Shown: positions 34,452 to 44,112 of the stretch, piece by piece
How positions within the stretch are numbered: the first letter of the stretch is position 1
How the letters are laid out: each line of letters starts with the position of its first letter
Source of the DNA: Aquimarina mytili
GTDB lineage: Bacteria > Bacteroidota > Bacteroidia > Flavobacteriales > Flavobacteriaceae
Reading direction: 5' to 3'
Assembly: GCF_016735115.1 (NCBI RefSeq)
Contig: NZ_JAERQJ010000002.1
Coordinates: 1-64,000 of the forward strand
Length of the DNA: 64,000 nt
The notes under the pieces: model-generated
Told to the model about the DNA's origin: nothing
What the model saw: the letters and a program-made list of their open reading frames with translations, nothing else
Database searches by the model: none
Program-made: the position numbers and the translations under genes

Positions 34452-35357
34452 CTATTTAATCTTACGCGCTTTTGATTTTTTATGCTTTCCAAACTGAAAA
34501 GCTCTCGAAATATTGAATCCTAAATGGACATCACCCTCAAAGAAATTATCTGTAGACTCTGTGATAAAACTTTTCTCGATCATTGTAATCGAATTAGAAA
34601 GGATAATTTGAAACACATGTCCACCAGTTTCAATATCGATTCCGAATGCCAGAGAATTTTTAGCATCTATAGACTCTAATGGGTTAATGGTATAATGATA
34701 CTCTCCATTTATCGAAATTCTTTTTGTTAACTTCACTCTACCTCCCATACCAATAGCAAAAATGTCGTGAGGATCTTTTAGTAGTTCTACAGAATTTCTG
34801 TGTATATAACTAGGTGTAATTTGTAGTGAGAAACCTGGACTAAATTTTCTAGCCAATAATACTTGTGTTGTATACGATAAACGATCACTGTCGCTGGGCT
34901 CTCTTCCGGGTTCAAAATCATTAATACTACGATATGCAGCACTAGCAAAAAGAGAAACGGAAATGGGCAAAGACTTTGCACCAGAACTTTGTTTTAATGC
35001 TCTATATTTTACAAAACCATCATAGGTTTTTTCAAAACTACTTCGCCCAAGACCTATCATGATATCATCTGATAAACCATACTCAAAAGCAAAACGAATA
35101 TTTGATTGATCTAACCCATATAATTCATCCGGACCAAGATTTACTCTTCCAAAGCGATGAGATATCACAAACTCTAATATTCCTTTATTTCTGTTTTCTA
35201 TAGAATGACCATTAAGTATCCTTGTACCTTTAAAGGTAGAAGTTACATAGTTTTTATCTTGAGACGCTTCATTGTCAAGGATTTCAAAAAGATCATCTTG
35301 TGCTAGTATCTGTGTCTGAATACCCAATAGAGTAATTATAATAAATAAATTTTTCAT
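34452..35357 (-). CDS. DUF5777-type outer membrane beta-barrel, copy A
   Basis: The 301-residue protein has a signal peptide (to about AQ at 20) and about ten amphipathic strands. The conserved segments RILNGHSIENRNKGILEFVI, FAFEYGLSDDIMIGLG, GFVKYRALKQ and GEYHYTINPLES match copy B at 43204-44112 over the whole length (for example GHSIE.R.KGILE, EYGLS/EYGIS, INPLESID). It is the last gene of a four-gene operon. The ligand is unknown. Confidence 0.8.
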   Translation of the reverse strand: MKNLFIIITLLGIQTQILAQDDLFEILDNEASQDKNYVTSTFKGTRILNGHSIENRNKGILEFVISHRFGRVNLGPDELYGLDQSNIRFAFEYGLSDDIMIGLGRSSFEKTYDGFVKYRALKQSSGAKSLPISVSLFASAAYRSINDFEPGREPSDSDRLSYTTQVLLARKFSPGFSLQITPSYIHRNSVELLKDPHDIFAIGMGGRVKLTKRISINGEYHYTINPLESIDAKNSLAFGIDIETGGHVFQIILSNSITMIEKSFITESTDNFFEGDVHLGFNISRAFQFGKHKKSKARKIK

Positions 35358-35358
35358 G

Positions 35359-35901
35359 CTACTTTTTATATGGTTTATGGTCTAAAGCAAAACTTACCTC
35401 TACAATTTCAGCGATATTATTGACTACTACTGAAGGTATTTTAATATTGAAGTCTGCAATTTTTAAAGGAAAGCTTCCTTGTACCGATATATGGTCTGTG
35501 GTTCGAGTAATTTTAGCTAATGTTTCTAGTTTTTGGGTAACACCATGAATAGTTATATTACCATCAATAGTTACTTCTTGCTCATTTTGATCTAAGCTGT
35601 TAAAATTCAAAATCTGTCCCTTAAACTTAGCTTTGGGATACTTATCGGATTCTACATAATTTTCGTTAAAATGTTCTTGCATTAATGATTTCTCGAACAT
35701 AAATGACTTCATAAGTATGGCGATGGCAATTGTACCTGTAGATGTGTCGATAATGCTTAATACTTGATTATTATCAGCCTTAATATCTTCAACTGGTGCA
35801 CTAGAAAAAAAAGAGGTATATCCCTGCTTTGTTAAGAACCGTTCTTGTCCCGATACAACGATAGTAAACAAGAAACTGAAAAGTAATATGTGTAGTTTCA
35901 T
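35359..35901 (-). CDS. YceI family protein, copy A
   Basis: The 180-residue protein is a secreted YceI-like lipocalin-like barrel: signal peptide, then QEVTIDGNITIHGVTQKLE, the family core, and DFNIKIPSVVVNNIAEIVEV. YceI proteins bind isoprenoid or amphiphilic molecules. It is clearly paralogous to the protein at 42666-43214 (SLMQEHFNENYVESDKYPKA versus SLMHEHFNESYIESDLYPKA). One base separates it from the DUF5777 gene. Confidence 0.85.
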   Translation of the reverse strand: MKLHILLFSFLFTIVVSGQERFLTKQGYTSFFSSAPVEDIKADNNQVLSIIDTSTGTIAIAILMKSFMFEKSLMQEHFNENYVESDKYPKAKFKGQILNFNSLDQNEQEVTIDGNITIHGVTQKLETLAKITRTTDHISVQGSFPLKIADFNIKIPSVVVNNIAEIVEVSFALDHKPYKK

Positions 35902-35936
35902 TTTTTAGATATTTTTATTTTTGATAGATGTGTTAA

Positions 35937-36362
35937 CTAATTAAGAATGATACATTTTACCAGGACAACGTCCATTAGATAACCAGTGCATATTCCTTTG
36001 ATTGTAATCATTTGTCCAACTTTTAGTGTGGTTAGCTTGCTATTTTCTTTTGCATCAATATGGCACATAACACTTCCAAATGAATCGTTATCACTTAGAC
36101 TTATTACCCCTTTTTCATCTGTTATGTTCAATTCAGATATAGTGCCGGTAATTTGAAGTACTTGCTCCAGGTATTTTGTGTTTGCCTGAGTCTCATTATC
36201 CTGAAACTCTTCAAGAACATTAGTTGCTTCTAAATAGAAATTCGGAGTATTTTCAGAAACGTCGGTATGTGGTTTATTAAATACTGTGACACTAATAAAA
36301 ATTACTGCTAAAATGATAATGAGTACAGCGTTTATGAGTATAATTTTAGTTTTTCTAATCAT
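35937..36362 (-). CDS. OB-fold (tRNA_anti-like) membrane protein, copy A
   Basis: The 141-residue protein has one N-terminal membrane helix (about 8-29) and an OB-fold of the tRNA_anti-like type: VLQITGTISELNITDEKGVI, LSDNDSFGSVMCHI, VGQMITIKGICTGYLMD. The C-terminal ..KGIC.G.L.D..L..C motif recurs in copy B. It is anchored at the inner membrane facing out. The binding partner is unknown; in this setting a protein-envelope or small-ligand role is more likely than RNA binding. Confidence 0.75.
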   Translation of the reverse strand: MIRKTKIILINAVLIIILAVIFISVTVFNKPHTDVSENTPNFYLEATNVLEEFQDNETQANTKYLEQVLQITGTISELNITDEKGVISLSDNDSFGSVMCHIDAKENSKLTTLKVGQMITIKGICTGYLMDVVLVKCIILN

Positions 36363-36366
36363 AACT

Positions 36367-36720
36367 TTAATTGTTTAATGCTCCATTATCAATCCAGCAT
36401 CTAATTCGCTCTATTTCTTCATTGGTTAAAGTCCCTCCTAAAGGCATTCTTCTGGTCACCACTTGTGTTCTTACTCTATTGGCGTTGTTTTTGATTCCGT
36501 CAAAAGTTCTTAAATCAGGAGCTTGATTACCACCATGACATCTAATACAATTAGAATCAATGATAGGTTTAACATCATCGATAAATGAAATATCTGTACT
36601 ACATATTTCACTTCCGATAGGTATTGGAATTTCTTCTTCGACATTATTATCACATGAAAAAAAAGTAATACTTAACATCATCAGTATGTATGCGTATTTA
36701 ATTTTTGAGATTGTATCCAT
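36367..36720 (-). CDS. cytochrome-c-like lipoprotein
   Basis: The 117-residue protein has a lipoprotein signal ending FFSC (Cys23) and one haem motif CIRCH (Cys58, Cys61, His62) in the setting DVKPIIDSNCIRCHGGNQAPDLRT. A distal MPLGG Met is the likely second haem ligand. It should pass electrons in the periplasm or at the outer membrane. It heads the minus-strand operon with the OB-fold, YceI and DUF5777 genes, 4 bp upstream. Confidence 0.85.
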   Translation of the reverse strand: MDTISKIKYAYILMMLSITFFSCDNNVEEEIPIPIGSEICSTDISFIDDVKPIIDSNCIRCHGGNQAPDLRTFDGIKNNANRVRTQVVTRRMPLGGTLTNEEIERIRCWIDNGALNN

Positions 36721-36737
36721 TGGTATTGAATTAAGGT

Positions 36738-36772
36738 ATAAGAGGAAGGAGCAAAGCCAACCTTCCTCTTAT
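36738..36772. terminator. hairpin between COG4315 and cytochrome genes
   Basis: ATAAGAGGAAGG and CCTTCCTCTTAT form a 12-bp perfect stem around an 11-base loop. There is no T run after it on the minus strand, so it may be a processing or partial-attenuation element rather than a full terminator. Confidence 0.6.
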
Positions 36773-36868
36773 GATCAACTAACTACTTAAATATGAAATT
36801 GAATTAAACTATATATTTAGGTAAAGTATTATAAAGTATTTAAAAACAATTGTTTAAAGTTTTTTGTT

Positions 36869-37720
36869 TTACTCTGGTGCTCCAGGAGTATCAACATTAG
36901 CTATTGGCCAAACCCCTGGTGCAGGGAAATTAATTCCAAAGTTATCTCCGCGTTCTACATCCTGCCCAAAGTAGTACAATGGCCATCCTTTAAAGGTTAA
37001 TTGTTGTCTACCAAAAACATCTATGGTTCCAAAATCGCTGGCATCAAGAATACTTGGCAACTTATCAATATCGATATGGAATACTGGCCAAACTGCATCA
37101 TTTGAGAAATCTGCTGCTGTAAAGTTATTCGTATCTTTTGTGTCATTCTGGAACGTATACAGTGTTCTTCCTGTATTTCCATTCACAATGTAGAATGTAA
37201 GTTCATCACCTTCTGTATAATCACTTTTAAAGTTTATAGGATTTCCTTCTGCATCTTTACCTATCAATTGAGCTTCAGCATACATCAAAGAATAATCTGG
37301 TTTTGCGATATACCAGTTATTACCTACTTTATCACCATTAGTGTCCCCAGCAGCATTGTCATTGGCAAAATAATACAGAGGCCATCCTTTATAGGTGTTT
37401 TGTTTTTCTCCATCTGCCCGAGTAATAACTCCAAAATCTGATGCTAGTAAACCTTCATCTAAGGTTAAATCGGCAGTATAAAATATTGGCCAGGCAGCCT
37501 TACATCCATCTGCACATTCTGAAACTCCTTTTGTATCTCTGGAAAAGAAATATAAAGACATACCATTAGCATCGGTTAGAATACTACCAAATGTTGCATC
37601 TGTAGCTAATTGTACAGTGTTAACCGCTGTTACTGGTGGAGTAGGTTGGGCATCGTCGTCACTACTACAACTATAGAGGATACCGACTAAAGTGAATACT
37701 AAGAAAATTGACTTTTTCAT
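36869..37720 (-). CDS. COG4315-type lipoprotein with two secreted repeats
   Basis: The 283-residue protein has a lipoprotein signal (ILYSC) and two tandem copies of the COG4315/Lipoprotein_15 repeat: GSILTDANGMSLYFFSRDTK...SECADGCKAAWPIFY...GWPLYYFAND, and GRTLYTFQNDTKD...AVWPVFHID...GWPLYYFGQD. The first repeat retains the Cys pair, the second lacks it. The family is surface or periplasmic and of unknown function; some members occur with electron-transfer genes. The regulatory motif at 37782-37837 lies 61 bp before its start. Confidence 0.85.
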   Translation of the reverse strand: MKKSIFLVFTLVGILYSCSSDDDAQPTPPVTAVNTVQLATDATFGSILTDANGMSLYFFSRDTKGVSECADGCKAAWPIFYTADLTLDEGLLASDFGVITRADGEKQNTYKGWPLYYFANDNAAGDTNGDKVGNNWYIAKPDYSLMYAEAQLIGKDAEGNPINFKSDYTEGDELTFYIVNGNTGRTLYTFQNDTKDTNNFTAADFSNDAVWPVFHIDIDKLPSILDASDFGTIDVFGRQQLTFKGWPLYYFGQDVERGDNFGINFPAPGVWPIANVDTPGAPE

Positions 37721-37781
37721 TTTTTTGAGTTTTTATGATTTATGAAGCAAAGTACCGTCAATACTGCCCTTAGAATCAAAT

Positions 37782-37837
37782 TAATATGTGTGAGAGGGAA
37801 AAAATGGCGTTAAAAAGGAAAAAAATGAGTTGAAAAA
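37782..37837 (-). promoter_or_regulatory. shared LytTR-candidate operator, site a
   Basis: Read on the minus strand: TTTTTCA, N6, TTTTTTCCTTTTTAACG, then ATTTTTTCCCT and CACACATATTA. It aligns over 56 bp with the sites at 40515-40571 and 41920-41976, the core TTTTTTCCYTTTTAA being common to all, with a second TTTTTTCC about 20 bp after the first. It ends 61 bp before the COG4315 start. Confidence 0.6.
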
Positions 37838-37838
37838 A

Positions 37839-38132
37839 ATGAGTAATATTGATTTACAACAACTGAAAACTAATCTCAAGAGTTTCCAGAATACTGTTGA
37901 TGTTCTCGACATGGCAGCTGAAGATTTCTCCAATGTAGTTGATGTTTTCGACACGGTAGTTGAAGGTTCCCTTAATGTAGCTGAAGATTTCTCCAATGTA
38001 GCTGAAGATTTCTCCAATGCAGCTGAAGATTTCTCCAATGTAGTTGATGTTTTCGACACGGTAGTTGAAGGTTTCCTTAATGTAGCTGATGTTTTCGACA
38101 AGATGGTCGATGTTTTTATTAATATTGTGTAA
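37839..38132 (+). CDS. heptad-repeat helical protein, 97 aa
   Basis: From the ATG at 37839 (a TTG at 37830 gives three more residues) the frame encodes 97 residues. Residues from about 23 on are ten or eleven tandem 7-residue units such as AEDFSNV, VDVFDTV and VEGFLNV, encoded by 21-bp DNA repeats. Hydrophobic residues fall at positions 1, 4 and 7, so one long amphipathic, acidic helix is expected. There is no signal peptide. The minus strand is also open because of the repeat, but its frame would include operator DNA. It shares no clear similarity with known families. Confidence 0.45.
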   Translation: MSNIDLQQLKTNLKSFQNTVDVLDMAAEDFSNVVDVFDTVVEGSLNVAEDFSNVAEDFSNAAEDFSNVVDVFDTVVEGFLNVADVFDKMVDVFINIV

Positions 38133-38179
38133 GATAGGAGAGAAACCCCCTTTATTCTAATAAGGTTTATAAACAAAAA

Positions 38180-38215
38180 AAATCCTGCTGGTCTCATTCA
38201 TAACCAACAGGATTT
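38180..38215. terminator. bidirectional hairpin terminator
   Basis: AAATCCTGCTGGT and ACCAACAGGATTT pair with one mismatch around a 10-base loop, next to an A run. It would end both the collagen-like operon (minus) and the heptad-repeat gene (plus). Confidence 0.8.
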
Positions 38216-38252
38216 GGGTATTGAGGAAAATAAAACCCCTTTTTATATTCCT

Positions 38253-38978
38253 TTACAGTATATCAATTCCCGGAATATTTTCTAATACAATAACATCTAC
38301 TTCTCCAGATATTGATAAATCATTATCACTACCGTTATTGTCTGCATCGACATCAAAAGAGAATGAGAACCTAAGATTATGTGTATCCTCGTTAAAGTTA
38401 AAATTAGTGATGCTTAAATTAGACGTAGGCGATTTAACCCCTAGATTATCAAAATCATCGTTAAGTTGTAATACCACCAGATCTTCAAAAACCATATTAT
38501 ATTCATTAAGGTCTAGTGTAAATTCAAACTCTTGAGTGTCGTTCCCTGGATTGATAACATTAAGTGTAATTCCAGCTGTAAACTCTTGAGAGTCTTCATC
38601 AGGAGTATTTAAAAATCGCAATAGATTAAATGTGATACTATTAGAATCAGTATCTGTAGTAAACGAATTAAAATTAATAAGCGAATTTGCATCTATAGCT
38701 GTAAATTCCAAGACTTTAGTATCTGTAAACGCTTCGTCGTTATCAGGTCTGGTTCCGGTAAGCGTTAAGTTAATACTTCCAAATTGAGTAAGCTCTGCGA
38801 AACCAACACCATCTTGTCCGTTAACTCCATCAGTACCATTTACCCCGTCAATTCCATTAATTCCATCCAAGCCATCAGGTCCTGCTGCACCATCTTCACC
38901 TTCACAATTGACTAAAGACATCCCTAGAAAACCAATGAAAAGGATTTTATATATTGTTGTTAAATGTATATGCTTCAT
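38253..38978 (-). CDS. collagen-like lipoprotein, paralogue 3
   Basis: The 241-residue protein has a lipoprotein-like signal (VNC, Cys25), eleven Gly-x-y triplets (GEDGAAGPDGLDGINGID...) and a beta-rich C-terminal domain of about 180 residues starting GFAELTQFGSINLTLTGTRP and ending SGEVDVIVLE. It is homologous to its two upstream neighbours over its full length. Collagen-like tracts make extended surface stalks; here the role is unknown. It is the third gene of the operon. Confidence 0.75.
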   Translation of the reverse strand: MKHIHLTTIYKILFIGFLGMSLVNCEGEDGAAGPDGLDGINGIDGVNGTDGVNGQDGVGFAELTQFGSINLTLTGTRPDNDEAFTDTKVLEFTAIDANSLINFNSFTTDTDSNSITFNLLRFLNTPDEDSQEFTAGITLNVINPGNDTQEFEFTLDLNEYNMVFEDLVVLQLNDDFDNLGVKSPTSNLSITNFNFNEDTHNLRFSFSFDVDADNNGSDNDLSISGEVDVIVLENIPGIDIL

Positions 38979-39008
38979 TTTATGTTTATTTTGATAATTT
39001 TTAGTGTA

Positions 39009-39725
39009 TTACAATTCAATTCGTTCTCCTTGTAGTTCTCTTAATACAATCACATCTACTTCTCCAGATACCGATAATTGGTTACCGGTAGTATTTCTAT
39101 CTGCTGGTATATCCAATGTAAAAGAAAAAGTAAGTGCATTCGTTTCACTATTAAAGTTGAAATTTGTGATGTTAAAATTCTCTAAATCAGCATCACTACC
39201 TACGAAAGTTGTTAGATTAAACACAGTAAGATCTTCTGAGATAATAGGATATTGAAATATGGTAAAACGAGATTCGTTAAACTCTGGGGTATCTGATTCG
39301 GGATTGGTGACTTCTAAACTAAATGTAGTGCCAACACTTTGGAAATCTTCGCCACCAGGAGCGCTAAGAAGCCTTCCAAAATCGAACTGTGCTGAAGACT
39401 CCTCTACAATAACAGAATTTGATTGTGGTAAAATTTCTGGAGACAAAGGAGTGAATCTAAATATCTTACTATCTGTAAAAGCTACATCGTCTGGCCTTGT
39501 ACCTTCTATAGTAAGTGTTATACTTCCAAACTGTGTAAGTTCGTCAAAACCTAATCCATCGGTTCCGTCTGTTCCGTTAGTTCCATCAACTCCATCAATT
39601 CCATTAGTGGCATCTTGTCCTGCTGGTCCAATGTCACCATCTTCTCCTTCACAATTGGCACATAATACTGCAAAGCAGCAAATAAAAAGTGTTTTATATA
39701 TGTTTATATGATTAAATATTTTCAT
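39009..39725 (-). CDS. collagen-like lipoprotein, paralogue 2
   Basis: The 238-residue protein repeats the layout of its neighbours: signal with lipobox LCANC (about 25), about eleven Gly-x-y triplets (GEDGDIGPAGQDATNGIDGV), then the shared domain (FDELTQFGSITLTIEGTRPD...SGEVDVIVLRE). The domain has diverged most in the middle (loss of the FNLDxxY segment). Gaps to the next genes are 19 and 30 bp. Confidence 0.75.
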   Translation of the reverse strand: MKIFNHINIYKTLFICCFAVLCANCEGEDGDIGPAGQDATNGIDGVDGTNGTDGTDGLGFDELTQFGSITLTIEGTRPDDVAFTDSKIFRFTPLSPEILPQSNSVIVEESSAQFDFGRLLSAPGGEDFQSVGTTFSLEVTNPESDTPEFNESRFTIFQYPIISEDLTVFNLTTFVGSDADLENFNITNFNFNSETNALTFSFTLDIPADRNTTGNQLSVSGEVDVIVLRELQGERIEL

Positions 39726-39744
39726 GTCTTATATTTTTAATTAT

Positions 39745-40446
39745 TTATTCTACTAAACCATCTATATCTTCTACAACGATAACATCTACTTCTCCAGAAA
39801 TAGTAAGGTCATTACCCGTATCATTATTAGCGGCATCGACAGTAAATGAGAATGAGAATGTAACCGCGTTGGTCTCATTATTAAAATTGAAGTTGGTTAT
39901 ACTAAAATTAGTAACCCCTGTTTGATCATTAATAAATTCACCAGTAAACCCAAAGTAGGTGAGATCATCAAAAATCATAGTATAATTATCAATGTCTAAG
40001 TTGAATTCAATAGTTTCCTCAGTTTCTCCCGGATTCGTAAAATCTAGATTAACTTCTATTTCTGAACCTTGAAAATCATCATCTGGGACACTTAGAGTTC
40101 GTTCTATATTGAAATTTAACTGATCATCTCTAATATCAACATCGTTATTAAAATCGATATCTTCTACTGCAGTAAACTTAAATTCGTCGGTCTTAGTAAA
40201 AGGAATATTATCTGGTCGTGTTCCTTCCAGGGTAAGTGTGATACTTCCAAATTGGGTTAGTTCGTCAAAACCAACACCATTTTGGCCATTAACTCCATTG
40301 ATACCATTGGTACCATCAATTCCATCTGTTCCGATGATTCCATCCTGTCCGGCAGGACCGATATCACCATCTTCACAATTGACGGATAAAAGCCCCAATA
40401 CGCCAATTACAATTGTTCGTAAAAAAAAGTTTTTCATTGTTTTCAT
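39745..40446 (-). CDS. collagen-like lipoprotein, paralogue 1
   Basis: The 233-residue protein has a signal with LLSVNC, Gly-x-y triplets (GDIGPAGQDGIIGTDGIDG) and the same C-terminal domain (FDELTQFGSITLTLEGTRPD, ITNFNFNNETNAVTFSFSF, ISGEVDVIVVED). It is the first gene of a three-gene operon, and the shared operator motif lies 68 bp before its start. The three proteins probably make a homo- or hetero-trimer through the Gly-x-y part; this is inference. Confidence 0.75.
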   Translation of the reverse strand: MKTMKNFFLRTIVIGVLGLLSVNCEDGDIGPAGQDGIIGTDGIDGTNGINGVNGQNGVGFDELTQFGSITLTLEGTRPDNIPFTKTDEFKFTAVEDIDFNNDVDIRDDQLNFNIERTLSVPDDDFQGSEIEVNLDFTNPGETEETIEFNLDIDNYTMIFDDLTYFGFTGEFINDQTGVTNFSITNFNFNNETNAVTFSFSFTVDAANNDTGNDLTISGEVDVIVVEDIDGLVE

Positions 40447-40514
40447 TTTAAAAAATTAATTTATGGTTTGAATGATGGTGCAAATAACCATGAATAGGGC
40501 GTTTCAAACGAAAT

Positions 40515-40571
40515 TAAAGTTTATGAAAAGGAAAAAATAATGTTTAAAAAGGAAAAAAAAGACTTGAAAAC
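40515..40571 (-). promoter_or_regulatory. shared LytTR-candidate operator, site b
   Basis: Read on the minus strand: GTTTTCA, N6, TTTTTTCCTTTTTAA, then ATTTTTTCCTT and CATAAACTTTA. The two TTTTTTCC blocks begin 21 bp apart, two helical turns. It ends 68 bp before the first collagen-like gene and aligns with sites a and c. Confidence 0.6.
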
Positions 40572-40693
40572 ACCATACTCTTTGTCTAAAATAGAGAACA
40601 TAAATAGTCCAAAATTCTTGACAAACTACAATGCTTTCTAGTCAAGAAAATAAAATGAAAATACCTGAAAAAATATAGATTTCACTACACTAA

Positions 40694-41800
40694 TTAGATA
40701 CTTAACCACTGTCTAAACTCTGCAGCTTTGTTTTTGCTAATGATAATTTCTACATCGGCATTGCGGATTAGTATTTTGAGCTGACTATTACCGTATTTGA
40801 TAATTTTTTCGATAGCGGCTATGCTAATAATAAATTGGCGATTGGCTCTAAAAAACAAAGAAGAATCAAGACTCGAAAACATATCATCTAAGCTTACATT
40901 ACTTGTAGATCTTTTTCCATCAGAACAAATCACATACGTAATGGTGTTTTCTGTATGGATATAAGCTATTTCATCAATGTTTATTGGGATTAACTCGTTT
41001 CTAATATAGGTGAGAATTCTCTTCTTTCCAGGATCTAATGATTGCTCTGTGGGTTCATTTGTAGTCGTATTTTCAACCACTCTTTGCTGATATGCAACAA
41101 GATCAGTATTTAGTTTTGAAAGGTTTACTAGTTCACTTTCTAGGCTTATGTTTTTTTGTTCGAGCTGTTTTTCATAATAACTACCTATGATACGAACTGC
41201 AAAAAATGAAGATAGGATAATTAGCCCACCCATTAGAGCAAATATGGTATAAAAACTGGTCTTAAGTTTTCGAGTTTGAGCTGATATCTTATCTAAATTT
41301 GCATGTGCAGCAACAATTAAATCAGAATCTTGCACGGGAGAGATATATATGATTTCTGACTCTGTATCAAGAGTATCGTTTTCCTTTTCCTTTTTGCGAT
41401 TCATCAATAAATCATAGAGTTTGTCAGAACTATTTTCTTCGCTCAGCGATTTTAAAAGTAATTGATTAGAGTTTACTTTTTGACCAACTTTTGTAATATC
41501 GGGATGACAAACTTCTTTACCCGACCAGTCGAATACGCAAATAAAAGAAGCTCCGCTATGTGTATTCTCAATTGTATTCTGAATATTATGTATTACTGTC
41601 TTTTTTTCAATACCACCTACCAATTGATTGCTGATAAGTTTTGCTATTTCATTGGCTTCTCGCTTACTGGATTCTAATTGTATTTCAATTAATTGATTAG
41701 CACTTACTTTGATAAAATATTTGACACCCAGAGATGCTATAATCAAAAAAATTATAGATATAGAAATAAAGGTCAAAAAGTATAATTTGTCTTTTCTCAT
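40694..41800 (-). CDS. membrane-bound Cache-type sensor with LytTR DNA-binding domain
   Basis: The 368-residue protein has two membrane helices (about 6-28 and 182-206) around an extracytoplasmic sensor of about 150 residues with the Cache-like ASFICVFDWSGKEVCHPD strand pair. A short coiled coil leads to a C-terminal LytTR domain (about 265-368; LIPINIDEIAYIHTENTITY, FFRANRQFIISIAAIEKI, IISKNKAAEFRQWL). LytTR domains bind two direct repeats about two turns apart. No kinase or receiver domain is present, so it is a one-component membrane regulator. It lies in the middle of the cluster it may control. Confidence 0.85.
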   Translation of the reverse strand: MRKDKLYFLTFISISIIFLIIASLGVKYFIKVSANQLIEIQLESSKREANEIAKLISNQLVGGIEKKTVIHNIQNTIENTHSGASFICVFDWSGKEVCHPDITKVGQKVNSNQLLLKSLSEENSSDKLYDLLMNRKKEKENDTLDTESEIIYISPVQDSDLIVAAHANLDKISAQTRKLKTSFYTIFALMGGLIILSSFFAVRIIGSYYEKQLEQKNISLESELVNLSKLNTDLVAYQQRVVENTTTNEPTEQSLDPGKKRILTYIRNELIPINIDEIAYIHTENTITYVICSDGKRSTSNVSLDDMFSSLDSSLFFRANRQFIISIAAIEKIIKYGNSQLKILIRNADVEIIISKNKAAEFRQWLSI

Positions 41801-42035
41801 TAAGCCGTTACATGAATCTTTGTGATTGCAAAACGCATCTTGTTAGGTATAATTATAATGTTAAAACGAAAATAATATTTTTTTTTACTATTTCGTTTAA
41901 TCACAAAACAATTGCAATTCTTTTCACTGGATTTTTTTCCCTTTTAACGGTTTGTTTTCAGCCTTACACACATTTATTAAGGGGGTTCACTATAATCATT
42001 GTTTATTTGATCCAATAAAAATTCAAAAAATATTA
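41801..42035. other. divergent intergenic region between LytTR gene and operon B
   Basis: It holds site c of the shared operator. A 68-residue frame across it (41812-42018) has no RBS and no family resemblance, and contains the operator; I treat it as non-coding. Confidence 0.5.
41920..41976 (+). promoter_or_regulatory. shared LytTR-candidate operator, site c
   Basis: On the plus strand: CTTTTCA, N6, TTTTTTCCCTTTTAACGG, then TTTGTTTTCAGCCTTACACACATTTA. It ends 59 bp before the ATG at 42036 and also lies upstream of the divergent LytTR gene. The second TTTTTTCC block is the least conserved of the three sites. Confidence 0.55.
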
Positions 42036-42131
42036 ATGATGAAAACATCTAAAAATAAAATGCTTTTATACTTATTTTCAATTGTAGCGGTTATTATAAT
42101 GTTACAAATCACATTTTTAATCACAACCTAA
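42036..42131 (+). CDS. 31-residue single-TM peptide
   Basis: ATG-ATG at 42036 opens a 31-residue frame with one membrane helix (MLLYLFSIVAVIIMLQITFL) and a basic start. It lies between the operator and the OB-fold gene. Copy A of the operon has no equivalent (it has the cytochrome there), so this could be a leader peptide. Composition and position are the only support. Confidence 0.4.
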   Translation: MMKTSKNKMLLYLFSIVAVIIMLQITFLITT

Positions 42132-42235: not shown

Positions 42236-42673
42236 ATGAATAGGAAAAATAAAATTATAACCTTTCTTTTTTGCCTTGTATTCGCAGCGGGTCTATATTT
42301 ATATTTTGGCTTTTATAATCGTTCATATGAAACAATAGATAATGTTGCAACAGATATTAGTATTAGTTCAAGAAAACTTACATCGACATATATGCTTAAT
42401 GAAAAAAATGCAAATTCTATATATAGAGGTAAGGTTATTGAAGTGGATGGTATTGTAAAAGAAGTCTCTTTTTTAAATAACCGAAATACTGTATTATTGC
42501 ATGGCAATGACAAATATTCTAGCGTAATATGCGATATGCAATCTGATCAAATCGAAGAAGTCAAAAAGCTTAAAGCCGGTCAGAAGATAAGAATTAAAGG
42601 GATATGTAAAGGGTTTCTTAAAGATGCGATATTATTAAACTGTATGCTGATTAACACACAAATCAATGAATAA
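42236..42673 (+). CDS. OB-fold (tRNA_anti-like) membrane protein, copy B
   Basis: The 145-residue paralogue of the protein at 35937-36362 has an N-terminal membrane helix (about 8-27) and the OB-fold (RGKVIEVDGIVKEVSFLN, GQKIRIKGICKGFLKDAILL NC). The ending IKGIC.G.L.DA.LLNC is the same in both copies. Its stop overlaps the YceI start by 8 bp. Confidence 0.75.
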   Translation: MNRKNKIITFLFCLVFAAGLYLYFGFYNRSYETIDNVATDISISSRKLTSTYMLNEKNANSIYRGKVIEVDGIVKEVSFLNNRNTVLLHGNDKYSSVICDMQSDQIEEVKKLKAGQKIRIKGICKGFLKDAILLNCMLINTQINE

Positions 42674-43214
42674 AATTATTGTTCTGCTATTTATTTTGAC
42701 AGGTTTTACGGAATTAGAAGTAAAGTCTGATCAAATTATCACACGCCAGGGACAAACTTCTTTTTTCTCTTACACCTCTGTTGAGAATATTGAAGCAAAA
42801 AACAATCAGGTGTTGAGTATTATAGATTTATCAAAACATAAAATTGCCGTGAGCATGCTCATGAATGCTTTTGTTTTTAAAAAATCATTAATGCATGAAC
42901 ATTTTAACGAAAGTTATATTGAGTCTGATTTATACCCAAAAGCCACTTTTGAAGGGAAGATTATTGATTTTGACCCGTTAGCCACAGGTACACAAATTAA
43001 AATCATTAAAGGCGACCTTACTATACATGGTATTACCAAGGAAGTTGAAATAAAAACAACGATTGAAAACAACAATGGCAATTATTTGTTAACGGGCGAT
43101 TTTGAAGCAACCGTTAAAGATTTTGACATCAAAATACCACCAATTTTAGCTCCAAATATTGCAAAAACCATATCAATAACTTTTAGATTTGAATATCAGC
43201 CATATGAAAAATAA
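42666..43214 (+). CDS. YceI family protein, copy B
   Basis: The 182-residue secreted YceI-like protein has TSFFSYTSVENIEAKNNQVL, KGDLTIHGITKEVEI and DFDIKIPPILAPNIAKTISI, aligning throughout with copy A. It should form the isoprenoid-binding barrel in the periplasm. Its end overlaps the DUF5777 gene start by 11 bp, showing translational coupling. Confidence 0.85.
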   Translation: MNKIIVLLFILTGFTELEVKSDQIITRQGQTSFFSYTSVENIEAKNNQVLSIIDLSKHKIAVSMLMNAFVFKKSLMHEHFNESYIESDLYPKATFEGKIIDFDPLATGTQIKIIKGDLTIHGITKEVEIKTTIENNNGNYLLTGDFEATVKDFDIKIPPILAPNIAKTISITFRFEYQPYEK

Positions 43215-44112
43215 AACACATCTTTTAGTATGCTTTTTTATCTTGATAGGATGTGGTATATCTATCAATGCGCAAGATTTATTAGAAACCTTAGAAAAAG
43301 AGTATCCAGACACACCGCAATATGAATTTGCAACGTTTAAGGCGAGTAGAATTTCGATAGGACATTCAATAGAAACAAGAAAGAAAGGCATTTTAGAAAT
43401 TCAAGCATTTAACAGGTTTTGGAATATCCCAAATTATGGAGGGCAAAGCTTTGTAGCTGATAAACTTAGTGCCAGATTGGCTCTTGAGTACGGAATTTCA
43501 AACCGATTAACCTTTGGAGCAGGAGGGAGTACCCTCGATGGAATCTTTGATGGGTTTCTAAAATATAGACTCATACGACAACGAAGTGATGGTAAGGGAT
43601 CTCCTTTGAGTGTTACACTTTTTCAGAATGGATCTTATCGAAGTAAGCGTAATCGACCTTTTCCTGATGTTAATAGATTTGATGAGTTTAGCGATAAATT
43701 AGCGTTTACAAGTCAATTGCTTATCGCCCGTAAGTTTACACCACAATTTTCTATGCAAATTTCACCAACGTACACGCATAGAAGTTCTTCAGCTTTTTCT
43801 GAAGATCCTAATAATCAATTTGCAATAGGAATAGGAGGACGTTATAAATTAGGCGGTCATGTATCCATTGCATCAGAATACTATTATGTCATTAATCCAT
43901 TAGAATCTATTGATACCTATGATGCATTTTCATTAGGAGTAAATTGGGAGCTCAGTGATGTGATGTTGCAATTTCATCTTACCAATACACGGGCAATGGC
44001 AGAAGATGCATTCATTATGCAAACCCCAAATAACTTTAACTTCAAAGATGGTAACTTGGTATTTGGGTTTAATGCTATTTTTGTTTTGCATCTAAATCAA
44101 AAGCAACCCTAA
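43204..44112 (+). CDS. DUF5777-type outer membrane beta-barrel, copy B
   Basis: I chose the ATG at 43204 (MKNKTHLLVCFFIL) since the earlier in-frame TTG lies further inside the YceI gene. The 302-residue protein has a signal peptide (cleaved near INAQ) and barrel strands matching copy A: GHSIETRKKGILE, LALEYGISNRLTFGAG, FDGFLKYRLIRQ, SPTYTHRSS, SEYYYVINPLESID. It is the last gene of operon B. Confidence 0.8.
   Translation: MKNKTHLLVCFFILIGCGISINAQDLLETLEKEYPDTPQYEFATFKASRISIGHSIETRKKGILEIQAFNRFWNIPNYGGQSFVADKLSARLALEYGISNRLTFGAGGSTLDGIFDGFLKYRLIRQRSDGKGSPLSVTLFQNGSYRSKRNRPFPDVNRFDEFSDKLAFTSQLLIARKFTPQFSMQISPTYTHRSSSAFSEDPNNQFAIGIGGRYKLGGHVSIASEYYYVINPLESIDTYDAFSLGVNWELSDVMLQFHLTNTRAMAEDAFIMQTPNNFNFKDGNLVFGFNAIFVLHLNQKQP

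What the first reader, a model, noticed from the sequence alone, without database searches (positions are those of the whole stretch)
37782..41976. Three copies of one motif before three operons around a membrane LytTR regulator
Segments 37782-37837 (minus), 40515-40571 (minus) and 41920-41976 (plus) align end to end over about 56 bp. They share TTTTCA, then TTTTTTCCYTTTTAA, then a second TTTTTTCC-like block about two helical turns on, then a CA-rich tail. Each ends 59-68 bp before the first ATG of a transcription unit: COG4315 lipoprotein, collagen-like operon, operon B. LytTR domains bind direct repeats spaced about two turns. The gene for a Cache-LytTR regulator lies in the middle of the cluster. 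I propose this is its regulon and binding site. The motif is seen; the link to LytTR is inference.
Basis: partly seen in the sequence, partly recalled or inferred. Interest (0 to 1): 0.78.

Follow-up and report, generated by a model that had tools for sequence, protein, structure and literature searches.

The report
Operator of a membrane-bound LytTR regulator
In a marine Aquimarina bacterium, a repeated DNA switch in front of three gene groups for cell-surface proteins is very likely where a membrane sensor protein made by a neighbouring gene binds to turn those genes on, and the same switch goes with the same sensor in many related bacteria.

Summary
The three segments share a motif whose 27-base core matches exactly three times in the 5.0-Mb genome, all here. 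It is a row of direct repeats: two strong half-sites (TTCCYTTTYAA-like) 20-21 bp apart and a weaker TTTTCA one upstream. The same motif emerges de novo from other genera without using this genome.

The link to the Cache-LytTR regulator (REG) is strongly supported by comparison but not tested in vitro. With a model trained only on other genera, sites occur in 26 of 31 REG+ and 2 of 21 REG- Aquimarina genomes. In Flavobacterium-type loci the motif sits beside REG with no YceI/COG4315 operon nearby. Collagen-like operons far from REG carry it; their homologues in REG-lacking genomes do not. Loci of other LytTR genes lack it.

New: a TTTG (-7 promoter box) stands at a fixed distance downstream (offset 50-52 in 111 of 140 sites), which points to activation. 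That box departs from consensus (T, not A, at -11). A fourth site in this genome precedes a lipoprotein cluster.

Closest precedents: CoxC/RcoM (three-repeat LytTR operators) and Bacteroides membrane LytTR systems. Verdict: a real regulon, a new variant of a known kind.

The parts
37790..37840 (-). Site 1 (COG4315 operon): half-site 1 TTTTCAA 37830-37836, half-site 2 37810-37820, half-site 3 37790-37800
   Evidence: top hit of R1 (2.5e-13) and R2 (2.9e-8) in the genome
37748..37780 (-). Predicted promoter of the COG4315 operon: TTTG 37777-37780 (-33) and TTTG 37748-37751 (end of -7 box)
   Evidence: fixed offsets in 140 sites
40523..40570 (-). Site 2 (collagen-like operon): half-site 1 40564-40570, half-site 2 40544-40554, half-site 3 40523-40533; -7 TTTG at 40481-40484
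   Evidence: R1 2.0e-9, R2 1.3e-5
41921..41967 (+). Site 3 (operon B): half-site 1 41921-41927, half-site 2 41937-41947, half-site 3 41957-41967; -7 TTTG at 42006-42009
   Evidence: R1 1.5e-9, R2 1.2e-4
40694..41800 (-). REG: membrane regulator, TM 8-26 and 186-204, Cache-like domain between them, LytTR domain about 269-366
34452..37720 (-). Operon A: COG4315 lipoprotein (PF03640), cytochrome c-like, OB-fold, YceI, DUF5777 barrel (co-transcription inferred)
38253..40446 (-). Three tandem collagen-like lipoprotein genes; terminator-like hairpin 38180-38215 after the last
   Evidence: Collagen matches are below Pfam's cut-off
42236..44112 (+). Operon B: OB-fold, YceI and DUF5777 genes, paralogous to the tail of operon A

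Best explanation
The motif is the operator of REG, a one-component, membrane-anchored transcription regulator with an extracytoplasmic Cache-like sensor and a cytoplasmic LytTR DNA-binding domain. LytTR domains, probably as a dimer or higher oligomer, bind direct repeats two helical turns apart (two strong half-sites and a weaker upstream third) and help RNA polymerase at an adjacent weak promoter. On an unknown extracytoplasmic signal this activates operons for secreted, lipid-anchored and outer-membrane proteins: COG4315/cytochrome/YceI/beta-barrel, collagen-like and TIG lipoproteins. Shown here by comparison: the motif, its conservation, its repeat period, its tracking of REG, its fixed distance to a -7 box. 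Inferred: physical binding, activation, signal, oligomeric state.
For: De novo discovery in 16 loci of other genera. Matrix from 14 of those sites finds the window sites and scores above 24 in 48 of 66 unused named loci, against 4 of 80 for the reversed matrix and 0 of 80 for each of 20 permuted ones. Held-out profile: 26 of 31 REG+ against 2 of 21 REG- genomes. Family: 16 of 16 REG+ against 0 of 133 REG- at E<=1e-5 with R1, whose positives are partly its training set. REG-only loci with the site. Collagen-like natural experiment. Other LytTR loci at most 13.3. Repeat period 20 bp, as for LytTR sites in print. TTTG at offset 50-52 in 111 of 140. LytTR and Cache folds.
Against: No binding or expression data. 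18 of 66 named loci score 24 or less, among them L211 (66% identical REG) with nothing above 18. REG+ misses with R2: G152, G153, G155, G167, G182. L022/G010, a remote homologue, has none. Half-site 1 is weak: best spacing 20 in only 18 of 49. A -33 TTTG is present in only 43 of 140 sites and the fourth own site has TTAG in place of the -7 TTTG. Sites in related genomes share ancestry.
Confidence: 0.82

Rival explanations
1. REG binds the motif but as a repressor released by a signal, as CoxC does.
For: CoxC, also a membrane LytTR protein with three repeats, represses from an operator over the -35 box (passages and section 17 of PMC11347149). In 43 of 140 sites a TTTG stands 21-23 after half-site 3 starts, and an early reading took that as the -7 box.
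Against: The far stronger TTTG at offset 51 places the half-sites upstream of -33. The -7 box lacks the consensus A-11 (4 of 83), typical of promoters that need help.
Confidence: 0.12
2. Another transcription factor, encoded elsewhere, binds the motif; REG is merely a neighbour.
For: Binding partner not tested; motif and REG could both belong to a conserved island.
Against: Motif tracks REG genome-wide, also beside REG in loci with none of the other cluster genes; distal sites exist only with REG apart from G194 (55% complete) and the marginal G190; repeat spacing is LytTR-like.
Confidence: 0.06
3. The shared segments are mere relics of promoter duplication: operons A and B are paralogues, and the collagen promoter was copied too.
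For: Operon A's tail and operon B share OB-fold, YceI and DUF5777 genes.
Against: Spacers diverge while half-sites stay conserved across genera; unlinked sites precede unrelated operons; collagen-like paralogues without the site exist in the same genome.
Confidence: 0.02
4. The motif is an AT-rich promoter feature (UP-like element or alternative sigma factor site), not an operator.
For: T-rich tracts; a shared unusual -7 box, TTnMTTTG.
Against: Only four convincing sites in 5.0 Mb; two to three phased repeats reaching far upstream; dependence on REG presence.
Confidence: 0.04

Closest known systems
CoxC (MHYT-LytTR, Afipia carboxidovorans) and RcoM1 (Paraburkholderia xenovorans)
   Same: CoxC: membrane sensor fused to LytTR in one protein. 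Both: three direct repeats of a TTC-type half-site; for CoxC 18-21 bp apart (passages and section 17 of PMC11347149).
   Different: MHYT sensor for CO in CoxC against a Cache-like domain here; CoxC represses over -35; half-site TTCNNGCA/TTNNNGCN against TTCCYTTTYAA; third repeat here is weak.
LRS-like operons of Bacteroides thetaiotaomicron and B. ovatus
   Same: Bacteroidota; LytTR regulator with TM segments; 11-bp repeats (TCCGGTATTCA type) 11 bp apart, 11 bp upstream of a promoter ending TATCTTTG (section 9 of PMC6193735; predicted there).
   Different: Those have a separate NfeD-like/DUF2154 membrane protein and proposed autoregulation; REG has neither shown here, and its targets are other operons.
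AgrA, ComE, YpdB (LytTR response regulators)
   Same: LytTR fold; paired direct repeats two turns apart near -60 in AgrA (passages of PMC4227749 and PMC4847170).
   Different: They are soluble two-component response regulators; REG has no receiver domain and has its own membrane sensor.
Transmembrane transcription regulators (CadC/ToxR-like)
   Same: Sensor and DNA-binding domain in one membrane-held protein; enriched in Bacteroidota (passages of PMC10269533).
   Different: LytTR domain. A Cache survey counts LytTR among transcription-factor outputs of Cache proteins (one passage of PMC4822843), so the domain pairing is probably not new in itself.

Membership tests
LytTR-family transcription regulator | C-terminal LytTR domain | tested here: met
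   PF04397 1.8e-18 in REG and in 58 of 58 aligned homologues; best Foldseek hit 3d6w, TM 0.90 by target length
LytTR-family transcription regulator | Direct repeats about two helical turns apart at target promoters | tested here: met
   Spacing 20 in 39, 21 in 6, 19 in 3 of 49 sites; autocorrelation peak at lag 20
LytTR-family transcription regulator | The domain binds those repeats | not testable with these tools
   needs gel shift or footprinting
Membrane one-component (transmembrane) regulator | TM helices plus extracytoplasmic sensor and cytoplasmic DNA-binding domain in one chain | tested here: met
   TM 8-26 and 186-204 by hydropathy; model pLDDT 80 with a domain between them; Cache-type Foldseek hits are weak, E 0.008 and up, and the window's sCache_3_2 match is below cut-off (17.7 against 28.4 bits)
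Two-component LytTR response regulator | Receiver domain | tested here: not met
   Pfam scan of REG lists LytTR and a sub-threshold Cache only
LytTR regulatory system (LRS) | Soluble regulator with a cotranscribed separate membrane inhibitor | tested here: not met
   REG itself carries two TM helices; no partner gene is shared by all REG loci by tblastn with the 19 window proteins used; other partners were not sought
CoxC/RcoM-type three-repeat LytTR operator | Three direct repeats required for binding | tested here: inconclusive
   A third, weaker half-site is conserved as TTTTCA but its spacing varies; its need was not testable

The most novel reading that the evidence does not exclude
A family of membrane-held Cache-LytTR activators across Flavobacteriaceae drives its own promoter class, defined by a three-half-site operator at a fixed distance from a non-canonical -7 box (TTnMTTTG, T at -11). 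It coordinates an envelope programme of c-type cytochromes, YceI, COG4315, collagen-like and other surface lipoproteins in response to an extracytoplasmic ligand.
Probability: 0.42. Interest if true: 0.66.

Novelty: new variant of a known kind. Interest (0 to 1): 0.55.

Why it matters
To my knowledge (recalled) few regulons of membrane LytTR regulators have been worked out. Library searches returned no paper joining LytTR, Bacteroidetes, direct repeat and binding site, or YceI with DUF5777 or COG4315 (open-licence papers only). This supplies an operator, a predicted regulon and a sensor for gene families of unknown function (COG4315, YceI, DUF5777, collagen-like lipoproteins) in many marine bacteria, and a clear test of how a membrane-tethered LytTR protein could activate a weak Bacteroidota promoter.

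Tried and rejected
The sigma-70 promoter scan gave a chance-level number (59 against a mean of 56.3 in shuffles), as expected for Bacteroidota. Reading the TTTG at offset 22 as the -7 box, which would favour repression, was dropped when the far stronger TTTG at offset 51 appeared. The single-sequence structure model was unusable (pLDDT 45.6); an alignment-based one was used. The 31-aa ORF before operon B has similar ORFs in only two (L082, L085) of 15 relatives examined, so it is not counted as part of the system. An early note listed G162:C1:857442 as a collagen-operon site; no collagen-like match exists in that genome and no downstream ORF was found, so it is not counted. In one search the real set had five restarts and the shuffled sets three. 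Function of the regulon: no paper found; left open.
Full report
WHAT IS THERE. The three segments align as stated. The core pattern matches three times in the window, against none in 100 shuffles, and exactly three times in the 5.0-Mb genome; the two further hits with 1 and 2 mismatches lie inside open reading frames. Around them are operon A (COG4315 lipoprotein, cytochrome c-like, OB-fold, YceI, DUF5777), three tandem collagen-like lipoproteins, REG, and operon B (OB-fold, YceI, DUF5777). The closest titled relative is an uncultured Aquimarina (REG 94% identical).

ANATOMY OF THE MOTIF. Stacking 49 sites shows half-sites of type TTCCYTTTYAA / TTCCCTTTCAC. Between the two strong half-sites the best spacing is 20 in 39, 21 in 6, 19 in 3 and 14 in 1 of 49; in the 39 with spacing 20 the matrix correlates with itself best at lag 20 (0.36, next 0.25 at 21). 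A weaker third half-site (TTTTCA) precedes them, with best spacing 20 in only 18 of 49. So the motif is a run of direct repeats two helical turns apart, the geometry reported for LytTR proteins (passages of PMC4847170; section 9 of PMC6193735) and, as a triple, for CoxC (section 17 of PMC11347149).

INDEPENDENT DISCOVERY. REG homologues at E<=1e-40 occur in 16 of 149 family genomes, the window's own included, and in 31 of 52 genus genomes; most lie beside operon A or B genes. A Gibbs search on 30 upstream regions from 16 loci of other genera, without the window, gave the same motif (575 bits against 407-439 in four Markov controls); some of the 30 regions, mainly internal genes, had no site. 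A matrix from 14 of those sites scores the window sites 37.2, 29.4 and 22.3; apart from shifted registers of the same sites the next in the window is 13.3. In 66 named loci not used before (14 duplicates of the 80 dropped), 48 had a hit above 24 and 58 above 18; over all 80 loci the reversed matrix gave 4 and each of 20 permuted matrices 0.

DOES IT FOLLOW THE REGULATOR? A profile trained on 21 sites from other genera (R2) was run on 52 whole Aquimarina-genus genomes: 26 of 31 REG+ and 2 of 21 REG- have a match at E<=1e-3 (Fisher p 9e-8). The two exceptions are G194 (55% complete, with an operon-B-type YceI on the same contig as its site) and G190 (8.3e-4). The five REG+ misses are G152, G153, G155, G167 and G182. 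With R1 (49 sites, partly from these genomes) the numbers are 29 of 31 and 1 of 21; across the family 16 of 16 REG+ against 0 of 133 REG- at E<=1e-5, but 11 of 133 at 1e-3. Three comparisons separate REG from its operons. First, six loci of Flavobacterium and near relatives hold REG, none of the other window genes by tblastn, and a site scoring 33-39 before a divergent gene; that gene was read in three of the six and scanned in one, L260, where it matches Haem_bd and cytochrome P460. Five further loci without those operons (L276, L278-L281), all 36-38% identical, have no hit above 24. Second, collagen-like operons far from REG in G165 and G176 carry a site (31.0 each), whereas the upstreams of seven collagen-like genes in six REG- genomes score -9.7 to -0.8, as do three collagen-like paralogues in REG+ genomes (-5.9 to -2.7). 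Third, thirteen loci of genes that match REG only around the LytTR domain score at most 13.3, against 26.8-42.6 for 16 of 17 REG loci of similar size; the miss is the 31%-identical L022 (9.8).

REGULON IN THIS GENOME. R1 ranks the three window sites first, then G000:C38:106833 (1.9e-8), then 0.002 and worse; R2 has the same four on top, next 0.0067. The fourth site precedes a small lipoprotein and two lipoproteins, one scanned and carrying a TIG domain, with 155 bp to the first ORF. It is not seen in the nearest sister genome, G170, at E<=0.01. In relatives, genes after sites include lamin-tail, spondin-N and CHRD proteins, mostly with signal or lipoprotein-like N-termini as read by eye.

HOW IT PROBABLY WORKS. 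In 140 extended sites (score above 22, identical ones dropped) TTTG stands at offset 51 from half-site 3 in 83 and at 50-52 in 111; the largest count at any offset in 200 Markov sets was 8. In the three window sites the distance from the TTC of half-site 3 to this TTTG is 49 bp. Bacteroidota promoters are TTTG (-33) and TAnnTTTG (-7), the transcript starting 4-5 nt after the -7 box, with A-11 nearly invariant in F. johnsoniae (passages of PMC6847099). Among the 83, T-11 occurs in 78 and A-11 in 4; a -33 TTTG at offset 21-23 in only 43 of 140. So the half-sites lie upstream of a weak, off-consensus promoter at one fixed distance, close to the AgrA arrangement (repeat centre near -60; passage of PMC4227749). 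This favours activation; it is inference.

THE REGULATOR. REG has TM helices at 8-26 and 186-204. The alignment-based model (pLDDT 80.2, pTM 0.50) shows a mixed domain between them, a long helix and a beta-rich C-terminal domain. Foldseek's best hit is the LytTR domain 3d6w of a Bacillus cereus 'methyl-accepting/DNA response regulator'; ComE and AgrA LytTR structures follow, with one helical histidine-kinase model (9a5d) among them; chemoreceptor ligand domains, CitA and DcuS come weakly (E 0.008 and up). For the window protein the Cache match is below Pfam's cut-off; 19 of 58 homologues match sCache_3_2 at E<=1.

KNOWN OR NEW. Membrane LytTR regulators, three-repeat LytTR operators and Cache proteins with LytTR output are each in print. 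Searches for LytTR with Bacteroidetes, direct repeat and binding site, and for YceI with DUF5777 or COG4315, returned no paper; the library lacks most subscription journals. I file this as a new variant of a known kind.

LIMITS. No binding or expression was measured. Sites in related genomes share ancestry, so counts are not independent events. The signal, the oligomeric state and the need for the third half-site are open.

Noticed in passing
window 37896-38123: A 21-bp (105-bp higher order) tandem repeat array lies between the collagen operon's terminator-like hairpin and site 1; Tandem Repeats Finder does not find it at the same place in the sister locus L082.
   Followed up: partly
window 42036-42131: A 31-aa predicted membrane ORF begins right after site 3's promoter; similar ORFs in L082 and L085 only, of 15 relatives examined.
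   Followed up: partly
L103 8009-9097 (also L192): A REG paralogue's site precedes a protein of the Bacillus_HBL family (PF05791, 3.1e-27), with a similar ORF next to it.
   Followed up: no
L255 (Aquimarina pacifica): Nine tblastn matches to collagen-like lipoproteins lie in a row beside REG.
   Followed up: no
L175, L178-L183, L189: In eight genomes a site lies between a YceI-type gene and a three-gene run that looks like radical SAM and methyltransferase genes (recalled labels, not searched), 165-207 bp before the first ORF.
   Followed up: no
L187, L190, L191: A site precedes a conserved operon whose second protein looks like an M23-type peptidase (recalled, not searched), about 16 kb from a REG paralogue in G160 and G164.
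   Followed up: no
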